64,000 nt of DNA from Brevundimonas naejangsanensis (GTDB lineage Bacteria; Pseudomonadota; Alphaproteobacteria; Caulobacterales; Caulobacteraceae). The translations under genes were made by a program, and so were the position numbers. Position 1 is the stretch's first letter; each line of letters opens with the position of its first letter. Location: positions 1,285,501 to 1,349,500 of the forward strand of contig NZ_CP015614.1 of assembly GCF_000635915.2 (NCBI RefSeq), written 5' to 3'. The notes below the pieces were generated by a model, which had not been told where the DNA came from, searched no databases, and saw only the letters and a list, made by a program, of their open reading frames with translations. Positions 45,833-52,646 of this stretch are shown one piece after another.

Positions 45833-47362
45833 ATGACTCAGATCATTATCGGCCAAGACCCGCTCACCCTCGCCCAGCTTCGCACGGTCCTCGACGGCCC
45901 CGTCACGGTCAGTCTGACCGACGCCGCCTGGGCCAATGTCGAGAAGGGCGCGGCGGTCGTCGCCGCCATCCTGGCCGAGGGGCGCACGGTCTATGGCATC
46001 AACACCGGCTTCGGCCTGCTGGCTAACACCAGCATCGCGGCGGAAGACCTTGAAACCCTTCAAAAGAACCTGGTGCTCAGCCACGCCTGCGGCGTCGGCG
46101 AACCGCTTAGCGAGAACGTCACCCGCCTGCTGATGGTGCTGAAGATCGCCAGCCTGTCGAAGGGCGCCTCGGGCGTTCGGCGTCACACGCTGGAGACCCT
46201 GATCGGCATGGTCAACGCCGAAATCCTGCCGCTGATCCCGTCCAAGGGCTCGGTCGGCGCGTCGGGCGATCTGGCGCCGCTGGCCCATATGTCGTGCGTC
46301 CTGATCGGCGTCAGCGAGGCCCGCTATCAGGGTCAGACGCTGGACGCCGTGACGGCCCTCGCCAAGGCCGGGCTGAAGCCGGTCGTCCTGGGCCCCAAGG
46401 AAGGTCTGGCCCTGCTGAACGGCACCCAGTGCTCGACGGCCCTGGCCCTGACCGGCCTGTTCGCGGCCGAAGACGTCTTCGCCGCCGCCGTCGCCGCCGG
46501 CGCCCTGTCGGTCGATGCGCTTCTGGGTTCGGACGCGCCGTTCGATCATCGCATCCACGCCCTGCGCGGCCAGCCGGGCCAGATCGACGTGGCGCGCCGC
46601 CTGCGTGAACTGCTGAGCGGCAGCGCCATCCGCGACAGCCACCGCCACGACTGCGCCAAGGTGCAGGACCCCTACTCCCTGCGCTGCCAGCCGCAGGTCA
46701 TGGGCGCGACGCTAGACGTGCTGCGCAACGCCGCCGCCATGCTGGAGCGTGAAGCCAACGCCGTGACCGACAACCCCCTGGTCTTCATCGAAGACGGCGA
46801 CGTCATCTCGGGCGGCAACTTCCACGCGGAACCTGTGGCCTATGCAGCCGATCAGATCGCCATGGTCCTGTGTGAGATCGGCAATATCAGTGAGCGCCGC
46901 ACCTCCATCCTGGTCGATCCCAAGATGACCGACCTGCCCGCCTTCCTGGTCAAGGACAGCGGCGTCAACTCGGGTTTCATGATCGCCCAGGTGACAGCGG
47001 CGGCCCTGGTGGCCGAGAACCGCATGGTCGCCCACCCCTGCGTCATCGACACCGTGCCGACCAGCGCCAACCAGGAAGACCACGTGTCGATGGCCACCCA
47101 CGGCGCGCGCCGCCTGCTGGACATGGCCGAGAACACGGCGACCGTGGTCGGCATCGAACTGCTGGCCGCGGCGCAAGGCATCGAGTTCCGCCGTCCGCTG
47201 ACCTCCTCGCCGGAGTTGGAGCAGACCTACGCCATCGTGCGCGAGGCATGCGGCGCCTATACCGAAGACCGCTATTTTGCGCCGGACATCGCCCGTGCAA
47301 CCGAGGGCGTCCGTGCTGGCCGCTATCGCCCCTTCGCCGGCGATCTGCTGCCTTCGGCTTGA
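45833..47362 (+). CDS. hutH: histidine ammonia-lyase
   Basis: HutH removes ammonia from histidine to give urocanate. The 509-residue protein carries the self-forming MIO cofactor triad Ala143-Ser144-Gly145 in [16 protein letters not shown], the active-site YGINTGFG near residue 53, and [14 protein letters not shown] and [11 protein letters not shown] further on. The length is standard. It is the second gene of the divergent hut half. With HutU, HutI and HutG it completes the route to glutamate. Confidence 0.97.
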
Positions 47363-47418
47363 ACCAGACGGCGGTTGAGCGCTTTCGTAATCAGCACGAA
47401 CGCAGGATGCCGCCGATC

Positions 47419-47919
47419 ATGAGCAGAAGCGCCGTCATTTTGGTCTCCGCCGCCCTGGTTCTGACCGGACTGGGGGCGGCGTGCTGGGCCGTCTGGAACT
47501 CCACCTCGGCCGCGCACGGCGAGGGGGCGCCCGACTCCGGCGTGACGGTCGAGGTCGTGCCTCCGATTGAGCCCGACCTGCCGCCCGGCTCCATCATGGC
47601 CGTGGGCGAGTTGCGCGACGGATATGAACACGATGCCGAGCGCGTCGCGGCCCTTTCCAGCGAGGACGCGCCCTATGTCGAAAGCGCATGGCTGGAACTG
47701 ACGCCGGAACCGTCGCAGCCGCCCTACTATGACACGCTGGCCGATTATGGCCCGCCTCTCTCGTCCCGACCGGCGCCGGAGCTGGCGCGCGACGACTACG
47801 GCTTCGGCTTCGATACGCCACAGCCGGACTACGCCGCCGAACGCGCCGCCCGTCAGTCGGCGCTGCGGGAGCGGCCTCAGCCCCAAAACAGGCCGAGGGC
47901 CGAAGAGATGTTCTATTGA
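47419..47919 (+). CDS. membrane-anchored protein, unknown function
   Basis: I take the ATG at 47419 (MSRSAVILVSAALVLTGLGAA), 11 bases after GCAGGA; an in-frame ATG at 47407 is possible. The 166-residue product has a single N-terminal hydrophobic helix or uncleaved signal. A disordered, Pro/Glu/Asp-rich region follows (VEVVPPIEPDLPPGSIMAVG) and a charged tail (ERAARQSALRERPQPQ). No family is recognised. It follows hutH by 56 bases but shows no link to histidine use. A terminator follows. Confidence 0.7.
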   Translation: MSRSAVILVSAALVLTGLGAACWAVWNSTSAAHGEGAPDSGVTVEVVPPIEPDLPPGSIMAVGELRDGYEHDAERVAALSSEDAPYVESAWLELTPEPSQPPYYDTLADYGPPLSSRPAPELARDDYGFGFDTPQPDYAAERAARQSALRERPQPQNRPRAEEMFY

Positions 47920-47948
47920 AAAAGGCCCCGGTTTCGCCGGGGCCTTTT
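47919..47948. terminator. bidirectional terminator
   Basis: AAGGCCCCGG (47922-47931) pairs with CCGGGGCCTT (47937-47946), with A residues before and T residues after, so it works on both strands. It separates the convergent genes ending at 47919 and 47954. Confidence 0.9.
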
Positions 47949-47953
47949 GCGCA

Positions 47954-48715
47954 TCACCGCATCGTGGTGACGGAAACGGTGTAGTCGCCTTCCTGCGCCG
48001 AGCTGAGGCTGTTGGCGCGGAAAGAATAGGAACCGGGGCGCAGGGTCTCTGTGATCATGGCGCTGGTCCCGCCGCCGCTGTCGTCGTCGGCGGCCAGGCT
48101 CTCGCCATCGCACTGCGGCCCTTCGTGCAGCGACAGGTAGGCGTCGAACTGCGCCGAATCCATCCGGATCGACACATTGCCCCGGGCGCCGATGTTCAGG
48201 GCATAGCAGTCGTAGAAGGAGCCGTCGTCGGCCTGACGGTCGCTGAACTCCAGACGACCCTGGCGGCTCTCACCAACCGAGATCGGCACGATCTGGGTGG
48301 TCGGACGCAGGCGCTGGCCTTCCGAAACAGTGAGGCGGAACGACCCGGTCTCGCCTTCGCTCAGGGTGTTGGCTCGGATGATCCAGTTCCCGCCGTTCGA
48401 GATGAAGCGCAGTTGCGAGTCGGTGCCCATGTCCGGCCCGTCGTCGTTCGTCACCGAGGTCTCGTCGCAGTCGGTCCCGGCGCCGGCCATCAGATAGGTG
48501 TCGAAATCGGACGAGCGCAGAGTCACCGTATAGGCCTGACCGGCTTCCGTCTGGATCACGTAGCAGCGATAGTGCGAACCATCGTCCATGCGCGCGTCCT
48601 TGGCGCTGAAGTTCCCGTTCACGGTCTGCCCCGGCCGGATGGAGCTCTGGGCAGCCGCAGCGCCGGCCAAAATCAGCGAGGACGCCAGAACCGACGTCAT
48701 CAACACAGCGCGCAT
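47954..48715 (-). CDS. secreted protein with two PPC domains
   Basis: The 253-residue product has a signal peptide (MRAVLMTSVLASSLILAGAAAAQ). Two copies of a pre-peptidase C-terminal (PPC) beta-sandwich follow, at about 28-130 (GSHYRCYVIQTEAGQAYTVTLRSS, then SDFDTYLMAG) and 145-250 (GSFYDCYALNIGARGNVSIRM, then AQFDAYLSLHEG). PPC domains usually sit at the ends of secreted proteases and help with export or binding; here there is no enzyme domain. Paired cysteines in each copy suggest periplasmic or extracellular folding. A five-copy relative lies nearby at 49814. Confidence 0.85.
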   Translation of the reverse strand: MRAVLMTSVLASSLILAGAAAAQSSIRPGQTVNGNFSAKDARMDDGSHYRCYVIQTEAGQAYTVTLRSSDFDTYLMAGAGTDCDETSVTNDDGPDMGTDSQLRFISNGGNWIIRANTLSEGETGSFRLTVSEGQRLRPTTQIVPISVGESRQGRLEFSDRQADDGSFYDCYALNIGARGNVSIRMDSAQFDAYLSLHEGPQCDGESLAADDDSGGGTSAMITETLRPGSYSFRANSLSSAQEGDYTVSVTTMR

Positions 48716-48764
48716 GGGAATCTCCTTGGGTGCGACGCAAAAATACAGGGCGGGAATGCCCCGC

Positions 48765-49817
48765 TCAGGCGACAGGAAGCAACGGAACTCGTTTCAGCGC
48801 CGCTAAATTTGAAGCGTTTACGCAGAAACACACGCTACGCAGCTGCCTTATGACCAGTTGGAACTGGTCAATGACGGCCTCGGTCGAGACGGTCGCGGCC
48901 TGAATCACGCCTGAGGCCATGCCCACCATGTCGGCGCCCAGGCGGATCGCCTTGGCCGCGTCCACCCCGTCCCGGACCCCGCCCGACCCGATCAGCAGAG
49001 CGTCCGGCAGGGCGTTGCGCGCCTCGGCCAGGGCGCGGGCCGTCGGTATCCCCCAACCGGCGAAGGCCAGGGCATGAGCCTTATCCGCGGGATCGGTCGC
49101 CCGTTCGCCTTCGATCAGGCCCCAATTTGCGCCTCCCGCTCCGGCGACATCCACGCCCGCCGCCCCCATGGCGATCAGGCGCTGGGCCGCAACGGCGGAG
49201 ATCCCGGCCCCCGTCTCCTTGACGATGACCGGCGCGTCCAGATCGCGGATCAGGGCCTGGAGCGCCGCGCCCACGCCCCACCAGTCGCGGTCTCCCTCGG
49301 GCTGGCAGGCCTCCTGAAGAGGGTTCAGGTGAACGACCAGGGCGTCGGCGCCGATCATGTCCAGCGCCCGGCGCGCCTCGTCCCGGCCGAAGCCGCGCGT
49401 CAGCTGGGCCGCGCCGATATTGGCCAGGATCGGCGTGTCCGGCGCCTTGAGCCTGAGCGCGAAATCCAACCCGCCGGCCGCGCCGCCTTCCAGCGCCGCC
49501 CGCTGCGAGCCGACGGCCAGGGCGATGCCCAAATGCTGGGCCGCTTCGGCCAGGCGCGCGTTGATCGCCTCAGCCCTGGCAGGCCCGCCGGTCATGGCGC
49601 TGATCAGCAGGGGCGCCTTCAGCCGCCGCCCCAGAAAATCGACGCCCAGATCGATGCGGGCGTGATCTACGTCCGGCAGGGCTTCGTGCACGAAGCGCCA
49701 GTCGTCGAACCCCGCCGAGACAGCGTGACGCCCTCCGCCCGCCAGCACCACGTCCAGATGCTGATCCTTGCGGCCCAGGATCAGGGCCGAGGCGGCGGTG
49801 TCGCTGGCGTCGGTCAG
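48765..49817 (-). CDS. fni: type 2 isopentenyl-diphosphate isomerase
   Basis: This FMN-dependent enzyme interconverts IPP and DMAPP. The frame has ISAMTGGPARAEAINARLAEAA, an FMN-site VKETGAGIS, GVDVAGAGGANWGLIE and IGSGGVRDGVDAAKAIRLGAD. The conserved N-terminal GRKDQHLDVVLAGGG lies upstream of the first GTG (49751) and in frame, with no ATG, GTG or TTG before it. The only sensible start is the CTG at 49817 (LTDASDTAASAL...), which overlaps the TGA of the PPC gene in CTGA. That gives 350 residues, the family norm. Expression is therefore coupled to the upstream gene. Confidence 0.88.
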   Translation of the reverse strand: MTDASDTAASALILGRKDQHLDVVLAGGGRHAVSAGFDDWRFVHEALPDVDHARIDLGVDFLGRRLKAPLLISAMTGGPARAEAINARLAEAAQHLGIALAVGSQRAALEGGAAGGLDFALRLKAPDTPILANIGAAQLTRGFGRDEARRALDMIGADALVVHLNPLQEACQPEGDRDWWGVGAALQALIRDLDAPVIVKETGAGISAVAAQRLIAMGAAGVDVAGAGGANWGLIEGERATDPADKAHALAFAGWGIPTARALAEARNALPDALLIGSGGVRDGVDAAKAIRLGADMVGMASGVIQAATVSTEAVIDQFQLVIRQLRSVCFCVNASNLAALKRVPLLPVA

Positions 49818-51628
49818 GGCTGTCGCTCCGTGATCAGCACATAGTCGCCGGTCGAGTTGGGGCTGAAGCTGCGGGCGCGCAGCACATAGGTCCCGTCGCG
49901 CGGCGCGGTCCAGCTCAGGCGGGCGTGGGTGTCGGACAGGCTGTCGTCATCCGTGTCCAGCTCGAAGTAGTCGCCGTCCTTCTCCTCGCCGACCTCGACC
50001 ACCGCGTCAAAGCTGCTGGCGATCAGGGTGAAGCGCAGTTTCTCGTCGGCCTTGGCCTTGAAGCGATAGGCGTCGAAATAGACGCCTTCCTCGGTGATGC
50101 TGGCGCGCTCGCTCAGCTGTCCGCGGACGGTCGCTCCGATCAACAGGCTGCCCGGCGCAGGCTCGCCGCCCAGATCGGTCAGTTCCAGCGAATAGAGGCC
50201 CTTGGCCTCACGCGACCACGAGCGCGCGCGCAGCACATAGTCGCCGCTCGCAGGCAGCGTGAAGATCAGGCGCGCGTCCGTCCCCTGACCCAGGCCGTCG
50301 TCGTCGCTGGCGAGCTCGCTGAAATCGTCCTCGTCCTGACCCAGTTGCAGATAGGCGTCGAAGTCGCCCGACCGCATGACAGCCTGGATCCGCTGCCCCT
50401 CGGACCCGCTGAATACGAAGGCGTCATACAGGCGTCCGTCGTCGTCGGTGGCGTCGCTGCTCGTCAGTTCGCCCTCGACCGTCTGGCTGAAGGCGATGGC
50501 GGAGGGCGGCGGAGGCGGCGCGATCTCCTCGATCTTGAGCGTATAGGGCCCTTCGCCGCTGGAGAAGGCGCGCGCCTCGATCAGATAGTCGCCGTCCTCG
50601 GCCAGGGTGTGCGTCAGGCGAGAGTTCAGGTCCCCGGCGCTGTCGTCGTCGCTGGCCAGGCTGTTGTGGTTGGCGTCGAACAGTTCAAGGAAGGTGTCGA
50701 ACCCATCCGCCTTCATGGTGGCCGCGATGCGTTGCCCGGCGCGGCCGCTGAACCGGTAGAGATCGGCCGGAGCGCCGGAGTCGCTGCTGGCGCTGTCCGG
50801 CGTCAACCGCCCGCGCGTTTCCTCCCCGACCGCGACGGGCGTAGCGGTCGGTGCTGGCGGCCCCTGTTCCAACGCCAGTCGATACGACCCCTGCGCCGAG
50901 CCGTCATAGGAGGTGGCGCGGACCAGATATTCTCCGTCCTGCGGCGCCGTGAACACCAGTCGCGCGTTCAGGCTGGACCCGCCGTCGTCATTCTCGGCCA
51001 TCTGCACGAAGGCGCCGTTCACAATGCGGCCGACGCGCAGCAAGGCATCGAAGTCATCTGATTCCAGATCGATTTTCACCCGCTCGCCCGCAGAGGCCCG
51101 GAACGTGTAGGCGTCGTAGCGATTGCCGTCGTCATCCTCGGCGCTGTTGGCGCCCAGGCGGCCAGAGGCGTCACGGCCTATGGCGACGCGGCCAGGACGC
51201 GGCAGGCGAGGCGCGGCGCGCTCCTTCAGCGACAGCCGATAATCGCCGGTCTCCATCCCCGAGAAGGTGCGGGCGCGCACGATATAGACCCCGGCCTCCG
51301 GCGCGGTGAAACGCAGGCGCGCATTCATATCGCCTGCGCTGTCGTCGTCGCTGGCCAGCGACTGTCGCATCGAGCCTTCGGCGTAGACTTCCAGATAGGC
51401 GTCGAAATCATCCGCCGTCATCTCGGCTTCCAGCCGCTGTCCCGCGCGCAGATTCAGCCGATAGTCGTCATAGCGATAGGCGTCCCCGCCGCGCGTGCGG
51501 GCGTCCCCCTCTTCCAGCCGCCCCCGGATGTCGTCTCCCAGCCGGGCGTCAGCCGGCGTTTGGGCGCTGGCCCCGCCAGCGACCATGAGAGCGACAGCGC
51601 TGGCCGCGGCGAACAGGGAGTAACGCAT
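49814..51628 (-). CDS. secreted protein with five tandem PPC domains
   Basis: The start at 51628 follows AGAGGTG and gives 604 residues with a signal peptide (MRYSLFAAASAVALMVAGGASAQ). The rest is five PPC-type beta-sandwich repeats of about 115 residues. Each has a variant of YDAYTFRASAGERVKIDLES, then DFDAYLxL, a DDDS acidic turn, ARLRFTAP and a YxVRARS strand. Linkers are short and Pro-rich (APPPPPSAIAF). The acidic DDD turns could bind calcium; that is inference. No catalytic domain is present. It probably acts at the cell surface as an adhesive or scaffold protein. It overlaps fni by 4 bases. Confidence 0.85.
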   Translation of the reverse strand: MRYSLFAAASAVALMVAGGASAQTPADARLGDDIRGRLEEGDARTRGGDAYRYDDYRLNLRAGQRLEAEMTADDFDAYLEVYAEGSMRQSLASDDDSAGDMNARLRFTAPEAGVYIVRARTFSGMETGDYRLSLKERAAPRLPRPGRVAIGRDASGRLGANSAEDDDGNRYDAYTFRASAGERVKIDLESDDFDALLRVGRIVNGAFVQMAENDDGGSSLNARLVFTAPQDGEYLVRATSYDGSAQGSYRLALEQGPPAPTATPVAVGEETRGRLTPDSASSDSGAPADLYRFSGRAGQRIAATMKADGFDTFLELFDANHNSLASDDDSAGDLNSRLTHTLAEDGDYLIEARAFSSGEGPYTLKIEEIAPPPPPSAIAFSQTVEGELTSSDATDDDGRLYDAFVFSGSEGQRIQAVMRSGDFDAYLQLGQDEDDFSELASDDDGLGQGTDARLIFTLPASGDYVLRARSWSREAKGLYSLELTDLGGEPAPGSLLIGATVRGQLSERASITEEGVYFDAYRFKAKADEKLRFTLIASSFDAVVEVGEEKDGDYFELDTDDDSLSDTHARLSWTAPRDGTYVLRARSFSPNSTGDYVLITERQP

Positions 51629-51722
51629 AAACACCTCTTTGCTGGCGTCATCATAGACGCCGAACCGCAGCGCCTGTAAATCGCGGCCCACGCTTTCCAG
51701 TTCCCGACCGATGGAGCCGAAC

Positions 51723-52646
51723 ATGGCTGTCGAACCCGCCCGCGCCTCTGTAATCGACGGCAAGGCCTTCTCACAGACCTTGGTGGAGCGCGTCGCAGCG
51801 GCGGCCGCCCGGCTGGAATCCGCCCACGGCGTCAAGCCCGGTCTGGCTGTCGTCATCGTCGGCGAAGACCCCGCCAGCCAGCTTTATGTCCGCAATAAGG
51901 GCGAGACGACGCTGAAGGCCGGAATGCGATCCGACACCCACCGCCTGCCGGTCGAAACGACTCAAGACGAACTGCTGGCCCTGATCGCCCAGTTGAACGC
52001 CGATGCGGGCATCCACGGCATCCTGGTGCAACTGCCGCTGCCCAAACACATCGATTCGTCCGCCGTGCTGGACGCCATCTCGCCGGACAAGGACGTGGAT
52101 GGCTTCCACGTCGTCAACGCCGGGCGCCTGGCCGTGGGCCTGCCGGGCATGATTCCCTGCACCCCGCTGGGCAGCCTGATGCTGCTGAAGGATCAGTTGG
52201 GCGACCTGTCGGGGCTGAACGCCGTCATCGTCGGCCGCTCCAACATCGTCGGCAAGCCGATGGCGCAACTGCTGCTGGGCGAGAGCTGCACCGTCACCAT
52301 CGCCCACTCGCGCACCCGCGACCTGCCCGCCCTGTGCCGCACCGCCGACATTCTGGTGGCCGCCGTCGGCCGTCCGGAGATGATCAAGGGCGACTGGATC
52401 AAGCCGGGCGCCGCCGTCATCGACGTCGGGATCAACCGCGTCTCTTCGCGCGATCCGGTCAAGGCCGCCGAGGGCAAGACCCGCGTGGTGGGCGACGTGG
52501 ACTTCAACGAGGCGGTCGAGGTCGCCGGACGCATCACCCCTGTCCCCGGCGGCGTCGGCCCCATGACGATCGCCTGCCTGCTGGCCAACACCTACACCGC
52601 CGCCTGTCGCGCGGCGGGGGTCGACCCGGAAGAGTTGAATGGCTGA
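51723..52646 (+). CDS. folD: methylenetetrahydrofolate dehydrogenase/cyclohydrolase
   Basis: FolD interconverts 5,10-methylene-THF, methenyl-THF and 10-formyl-THF, which feeds purine and formyl-Met synthesis. The start at 51723 follows GGAG. The 307-residue protein has [19 protein letters not shown] with the catalytic Lys, [59 protein letters not shown] (NADP site) and [19 protein letters not shown]. It is divergent from the PPC gene. A palindromic repeat follows. Confidence 0.97.

What the first reader, a model, noticed from the sequence alone, without database searches (positions are those of the whole stretch)
48765..49817. IPP isomerase seems to start at a CTG codon overlapping a stop
The conserved N-terminal GRKDQHLDVVL lies upstream of the first usual start codon and in frame, with no ATG, GTG or TTG before it. 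CTG at 49817 overlaps the TGA of the PPC gene in CTGA, exactly like the ATGA overlaps elsewhere. CTG starts are rare in bacteria, and coupling to a surface protein gene is odd for an essential isoprenoid enzyme.
Basis: partly seen in the sequence, partly recalled or inferred. Interest (0 to 1): 0.5.

Follow-up and report, generated by a model that had tools for sequence, protein, structure and literature searches.

The report
Isomerase gene starting at CTG codon
A gene for an isoprenoid enzyme in a Brevundimonas bacterium very probably begins at the rare start codon CTG, which overlaps the stop codon of the gene before it; nine related genomes share this, so it is a real inherited feature, but CTG starts are already known in this bacterial family.

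Summary
On the minus strand, the type 2 IPP isomerase frame has no ATG, GTG or TTG before the conserved RKDQH. CTG at 49817-49815 overlaps the PPC gene's TGA as CTGA. It is not a sequencing error: this genome and nine others, one Brevundimonas diminuta/naejangsanensis clade, share the CTGA, the register, GGAG 8 nt upstream and the lack of a usual start nearby. The other 65 of 75 distinct rows have ATG, GTG or TTG. In one member, L010, the first usual start lies 81 nt after the start of RKDQH. I conclude that translation starts at CTG, probably by termination-reinitiation, after a deletion joined the PPC stop to an ancestral start (both inferred). The neighbourhood is old: an upstream PPC gene in 52 of 69 loci. 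'Essential' is doubtful: Dxr and IspH are present, and 22 of 131 genus genomes gave no Idi-2 match. CTG starts are rare but known: 0.7% of mapped starts in Caulobacter crescentus, same family (PMC4117421). Ordinary in kind, well conserved, unproven without N-terminal data.

The parts
48765..49817 (-). idi-2 (fni), type 2 isopentenyl-diphosphate isomerase, 350 aa, starting at CTG
   Evidence: TIGR02151 363 bits, residues 16-347; translation
49815..49817 (-). proposed CTG start codon
   Evidence: no ATG/GTG/TTG in frame from 49946 down to 49751; CTG conserved in 10 of 10 clade genomes
49814..49816 (-). TGA stop of the PPC gene, overlapping the CTG (CTGA)
49826..49829 (-). GGAG, Shine-Dalgarno-like, 8 nt before the CTG, inside the PPC coding end
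   Evidence: present in 10 of 10 clade genomes, 1 of 36 other PPC tails
49814..51628 (-). PPC-domain protein with a signal-peptide-like N-terminus (by eye), 604 aa; start ATG 51628 chosen by eye
   Evidence: PF04151 E 3.4e-31, scanned as the longer ORF 49814-51856; translation; sequence AAAGAGGTGTTTATG
49749..49751 (-). GTG, first usual start codon in frame; would remove RKDQHLD
48745..48764 (-). terminator-like stem-loop followed by a T-rich stretch, directly after the idi-2 stop
   Evidence: 3 found in the region, 1.8 expected by chance, so weak

Best explanation
The isomerase is translated from CTG 49817, read by initiator tRNA as methionine, giving a 350-residue protein. Ribosomes that finish the PPC gene at TGA are placed on CTGA, with GGAG 8 nt upstream, and a fraction restart at CTG (termination-reinitiation). 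This makes isomerase output low and dependent on PPC translation. [quoted passage not shown] Shown: sequence, conservation, register, lack of usual starts. Inferred: initiation itself, coupling, low output, the deletion.
For: No usual start in frame before RKDQH. The same CTGA, in register, in 10 of 10 clade genomes, isolates and MAGs; 9 have no ATG/GTG/TTG anywhere in the open frame upstream, and the tenth only one 447 nt upstream, inside PPC. The 10 are one side of one branch (UFBoot 98). The leader, counted from CTG, is 15 codons in nine and 14 in one, so its length change keeps the frame. GGAG 8 nt upstream in 10 of 10, against 1 of 36 other PPC tails. L010 lacks the GTG; its first usual start is 81 nt after the first base of RKDQH. 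Residues 2-3 after CTG are [ST][DE] in 9 of 10, as after the usual starts in 40 of 65 other rows. Arg16, Lys17 and His20 align with Arg7, Lys8 and His11 of chain 2zru; a review lists Arg7 and Lys8 near the substrate (PMC3509576, passages). Caulobacter: 0.7% of mapped starts are CTG (PMC4117421, passages).
Against: All ten genomes probably descend from one event, so the counts are not independent. The leader between CTG and ALILG varies at all three codon positions (4, 3 and 5 of 14 columns in the nine of equal length), so it shows no clear coding periodicity of its own. The constant C of the CCC codon is weak evidence: 50 of 167 fourfold sites of the isomerase are also invariant in the ten. 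GGAG-N8-CTGA is expected 2.8 times per 64 kb by chance. In Caulobacter, Shine-Dalgarno sites precede only 24.6% of starts against 19.2% at random (PMC4117421), so GGAG is a weak sign. Initiation complexes on CUG are less stable than on AUG, GUG or UUG, and E. coli initiator tRNA is said not to start efficiently there (PMC11497404, passages). A second CTG (49784) is also conserved. No protein or ribosome data were available.
Confidence: 0.84

Rival explanations
1. Translation starts at the second conserved CTG (49784) or the neighbouring ATC (49781), giving LILGRKDQ..., still with the active-site residues.
For: CTG ATC is conserved in all ten and in several relatives; it keeps RKDQH. Many Caulobacter genes lack a Shine-Dalgarno.
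Against: Duplex energy upstream is 0.7 to -1.7 kcal/mol for these codons against -5.6 to -6.2 for CTG 49817. In the close relatives L011-L016 the same codons lie inside the protein, after ATG or GTG AGC GA(C/T) GAC. None of the 65 chosen starts of other rows is followed by IL.
Confidence: 0.09
2. The isomerase starts at GTG 49751 and lacks RKDQHLD, perhaps as a reduced or inactive protein.
For: It is the first usual start codon; upstream duplex energy -4.5 in the window.
Against: RKDQHLD stays intact in 10 of 10 clade genomes, which selection would not keep if untranslated. L010 has no GTG there and no usual start until 81 nt after the first base of RKDQH.
Confidence: 0.03
3. A -1 frameshift near the PPC stop makes a PPC-isomerase fusion, with no separate start.
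For: The isomerase frame is open for 32 to 211 codons upstream of RKDQH in the ten, so beyond the leader into PPC, and lies in the -1 frame relative to PPC.
Against: No X_XXY_YYZ heptamer in the last 40 PPC codons in any of the ten. The other rows have their own usual starts. PPC has a signal-peptide-like start, so a fusion would send a cytoplasmic enzyme out of the cell (inference).
Confidence: 0.02
4. Sequencing error: the base is really A, G or T.
For: A single base would make a usual start without changing proline.
Against: The same C in ten genomes, nine of them not this one.
Confidence: 0.01

Closest known systems
CTG-initiated genes of Caulobacter crescentus mapped by ribosome profiling and mass spectrometry (PMC4117421)
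   Same: Same family, Caulobacteraceae; CTG start; 0.7% of the starts identified, 3235 CDSs mapped (passages).
   Different: Those were measured. This one is inferred from sequence. The paper's gene list was not seen, so whether any sits in a CTGA overlap is unknown to me.
Four-base overlapping gene pairs (ATGA, GTGA) coupled by termination-reinitiation (PMC10666635)
   Same: Overlap of -4, the commonest short overlap (passages).
   Different: CTGA in place of ATGA or GTGA; in the passages I saw only those two are named for the -4 overlap. Coupling is not shown here.
Start codon switches to CUG in prokaryotes (PMC5622118)
   Same: A usual start replaced by CUG in evolution.
   Different: There counted as substitutions: 2 of 61,358 AUG, 1 of 5,080 GUG, 1 of 2,468 UUG ancestors (passages). 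Here a deletion is more likely (inference) and the CTG has lasted through a clade.
Type 2 isopentenyl-diphosphate isomerase (Idi-2, Fni; TIGR02151; 2zru, 1vcf, 1p0k)
   Same: Family match over residues 16-347 of 350 and aligned N-terminal substrate-binding residues.
   Different: Only the start codon and a leader longer than the MSDDLILG of relatives such as L011 and L012.

Membership tests
Type 2 IPP isomerase | Full-length match above the curated cut-off | tested here: met
   TIGR02151 363.1 bits, cut-off 281.3, residues 16-347, profile 2-335 of 338
Type 2 IPP isomerase | N-terminal Arg-Lys and His that align with Arg7, Lys8, His11 of a solved structure | tested here: met
   Alignment to 2zru
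Type 2 IPP isomerase | FMN-dependent isomerase activity | not testable with these tools
   Needs purified protein
CTG-initiated bacterial genes | No usual start codon that yields a complete protein | tested here: met
CTG-initiated bacterial genes | Conserved CTG in relatives | tested here: met
   CTG in 10 of 10 rows that lack a usual start near RKDQH; the other 65 of 75 distinct rows have ATG, GTG or TTG
CTG-initiated bacterial genes | Initiation observed at the CTG (N-terminal peptide, ribosome footprint) | not testable with these tools
   No such data held
Termination-reinitiation gene pairs | Short overlap, here -4 | tested here: met
   CTGA
Termination-reinitiation gene pairs | Downstream translation depends on upstream translation | not testable with these tools
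   Needs a reporter

The most novel reading that the evidence does not exclude
The CTGA junction is a selected, coupling-only start: too weak for free ribosomes, it lets the isomerase be made only by ribosomes that have just ended PPC translation, tying isoprenoid balance to an exported protein. It was made in one step by a deletion that joined stop to start, and kept in the whole clade although one silent change in the last proline codon would give ATG, GTG or TTG.
Probability: 0.2. Interest if true: 0.5.

Novelty: new member of a known kind. Interest (0 to 1): 0.33.

Why it matters
It is a clean natural case of a CTG start shared by ten genomes, where a single silent base change would give a stronger start. 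That makes it a good model for asking whether weak starts at gene overlaps are kept by selection. In practice it warns that gene finders limited to ATG, GTG and TTG would cut off the substrate-binding residues of this enzyme in these species.

Tried and rejected
Sequencing error: rejected by ten genomes. Start at GTG 49751: rejected by L010 and by conservation of RKDQH. Frameshift fusion: no slippery heptamer. Codon-position bias of the leader as proof of translation: gave no clear periodicity. Constant proline third base as proof of selection: too weak. RNA folding round the start: unpaired fractions scattered, no pattern. Consensus sigma-70 promoters in 47900-51900: 0 found, 0.2 expected, so nothing was learned about an own promoter of the isomerase.

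Census for other CTG starts: 400 kb of this genome against 400 kb of relative G033. A first pass flagged 307 of 490 ORFs, shadow frames included. The stricter pass left 113 non-shadow ORFs with a match, of which 46 align at least 8 codons before their first usual start; the script printed 40 of these 46, ranked by identity just before that codon. The isomerase is one of three with 8 of 8 identical residues there, and the only printed one in which I saw a conserved protein core before any usual start; the others read, by eye, as upstream sequence, overlapping genes or antisense frames. hemA (name recalled from its sequence), which looked like a second case, starts at TTG. The screen is blind to CTG starts that have an ATG/GTG/TTG upstream in frame and to genes missing from either stretch.

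Whether one of the 10 NUDIX matches of the genome is a type 1 isomerase was not resolved. Paper searches for CTG starts in Brevundimonas: one search listed 10 of 54 papers holding two or more terms, none of those 10 with Brevundimonas; (16 papers on Brevundimonas and the isomerase, 15 listed) shows titles mostly on carotenoids, and I opened none of them.

Full report
What is there. The window lies in a one-contig genome of 2.97 Mb whose nearest named relatives are Brevundimonas. On the minus strand a PPC-domain protein gene (49814-51628, 604 aa, start chosen by eye) is followed by a type 2 isopentenyl-diphosphate isomerase (TIGR02151, 363 bits, cut-off 281). The isomerase frame is open from 49946 to its stop at 48765 and has no ATG, GTG or TTG before GTG 49751. 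That GTG lies within RKDQHLDVVL. CTG 49817-49815 shares CTGA with the PPC stop 49816-49814.

Why the true start must lie upstream of GTG 49751. Arg16, Lys17 and His20 of the CTG-started protein align with Arg7, Lys8 and His11 of the solved chain 2zru; a review lists Arg7 and Lys8 among residues near the substrate (PMC3509576, passages seen). RKDQHLD is unchanged in all ten close genomes. In one of them, L010 (G030), the GTG is gone and the first usual start lies 81 nt after the first base of RKDQH.

Is the CTG shared? I fetched loci from the genus (109 of 131 genomes match, 30 loci taken) and from named genomes (103 related, best 80 kept). Of these 110 loci, 98 had an N-terminus and length that my pattern could read; the unread ones include the ten Stutzerimonas, Pseudomonas and Halomonas loci. 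After removing copies, 75 distinct rows remained. Ten have no usual start within 60 codons upstream of RKDQH, and these ten are one side of a single branch of the protein tree (UFBoot 98, SH-aLRT 87). They are this genome, B. naejangsanensis DSM 23858, B. diminuta 470-4, ATCC 11568 and 3F5N, B. guildfordensis, Brevundimonas sp. 357 and UBA4609, a MAG labelled Bordetella that falls among them, and G030. All ten have CCCTGA with the CTG in register. Nine have no ATG/GTG/TTG anywhere in the open frame upstream; the tenth (ATCC 11568, L005/L033) has one ATG 447 nt upstream, deep inside PPC. The other 65 rows have ATG (39), GTG (17) or TTG (9) as the start chosen by rule near RKDQH.

Signs of initiation. 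GGAG lies 8 nt before the CTG in 10 of 10. Of 36 other PPC tails that fit the pattern, one has GGAG and 35 have CGAG or CGAA. The estimated duplex energy with the anti-Shine-Dalgarno is -5.6 to -6.2 kcal/mol for the CTG, against 0.7 to -1.7 for the CTG and ATC at 49784 and 49781. The two residues after the CTG are [ST][DE] in 9 of 10, like the residues after the chosen starts of 40 of 65 other rows. The ten are probably descendants of one event, so I treat them as one consistent piece of evidence, not as ten.

Limits. The leader of 14-15 codons is poorly conserved apart from its end and shows no clear codon-position bias (4, 3, 5 variable of 14 columns each, nine rows). The constant C of the last PPC codon is not striking, as 50 of 167 fourfold sites in the isomerase are invariant too. 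The bare motif GGAG-N8-CTGA would be expected 2.8 times in such a window. RNA folding gave nothing clear. A start at the second CTG (49784) is therefore not fully excluded.

How it probably arose (inference). In a near relative, L014, the junction reads CCC TGA TC GTG AGC GAC GAC CTG ATC CTG; in L011, L012, L013, L015 and L016 CCC TGA is followed by a spacer and ATG or GTG AGC GA(C/T) GAC. Removing the stretch between the first TGA and the TGA inside GTGAGC or ATGAGC yields exactly CCC TGA GC, the junction seen in eight of the ten (this genome has CCC TGA CC, naejangsanensis CCC TGA AC). [quoted passage not shown] The six or seven extra codons of the leader must then be a separate gain.

Mechanism. 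The four-base overlap is the commonest short overlap in prokaryotes, and short overlaps are linked to termination-reinitiation (PMC10666635, passages). A paper on initiation complexes states that complexes on CUG are less stable than on AUG, GUG or UUG and that E. coli initiator tRNA does not start efficiently on CUG (PMC11497404, passages). I therefore expect weak translation, most of it by ribosomes that have just ended PPC. None of this was measured.

Context. I looked at 81 loci (L031-L110 and L112), of which 69 had a readable isomerase frame. An upstream PPC match within 400 nt was found in 52 of these 69; all 52 also hold a folD match and 46 a hutH match in the fetched stretch. Some of the 17 misses have short upstream sequence. 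So the neighbourhood is old and the pairing not peculiar to this clade. The genome has Dxr and IspH, so it makes isoprenoids by the MEP route, in which IspH yields both IPP and DMAPP (established knowledge). In the genus, 22 of 131 genomes, 19 of 110 of high quality, gave no Idi-2 match at E 0.001; this is a lower bound for absence, since at least one counted match (G109, 23 bits) is a short weak one. A review calls the isomerase reaction essential for bacterial growth (PMC3509576, passage), which I read as a general statement. The enzyme is thus unlikely to be essential here, which fits a weak start.

How unusual. Switches to CUG are very rare in a study of 36 genome groups: 2 of 61,358 from AUG, 1 of 5,080 from GUG, 1 of 2,468 from UUG (PMC5622118, passages). 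Yet in Caulobacter crescentus, same family, 0.7% of the starts identified are CTG, with 3235 CDSs mapped (PMC4117421, passages). In a 400-kb sample of this genome the isomerase was the only clear case that I saw among 113 comparable ORFs (46 flagged, 40 of these inspected). Verdict: a real, inherited CTG start, a new member of a known kind.

Noticed in passing
45833-52646: folD - PPC - idi-2 - hutH is a neighbourhood shared by many Brevundimonas genomes; a second, shorter PPC gene (47954-48715) follows idi-2 here, and a downstream PPC match was found in 17 of 69 loci, among them this clade and its near relatives L038-L041.
   Followed up: partly
49781-49786: A second CCCTGA occurs inside the isomerase leader (GCCCTGATCCTG), its CTG 33 nt downstream of the proposed start, conserved in all ten clade genomes.
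   Followed up: partly
L037 (JAFKFS010000076.1): A MAG contig labelled Bordetella carries the Brevundimonas diminuta-type locus, so it looks mislabelled or contaminated.
   Followed up: no
48745-48764: Terminator-like hairpin directly after the isomerase stop, suggesting that the PPC-idi transcript may end there (weak).
   Followed up: no
G000:C1 near 1147251: hemA of this genome (name recalled) appears to start at TTG (TTGTTCGACTAT), with an ATG lying upstream in the same open frame.
   Followed up: partly
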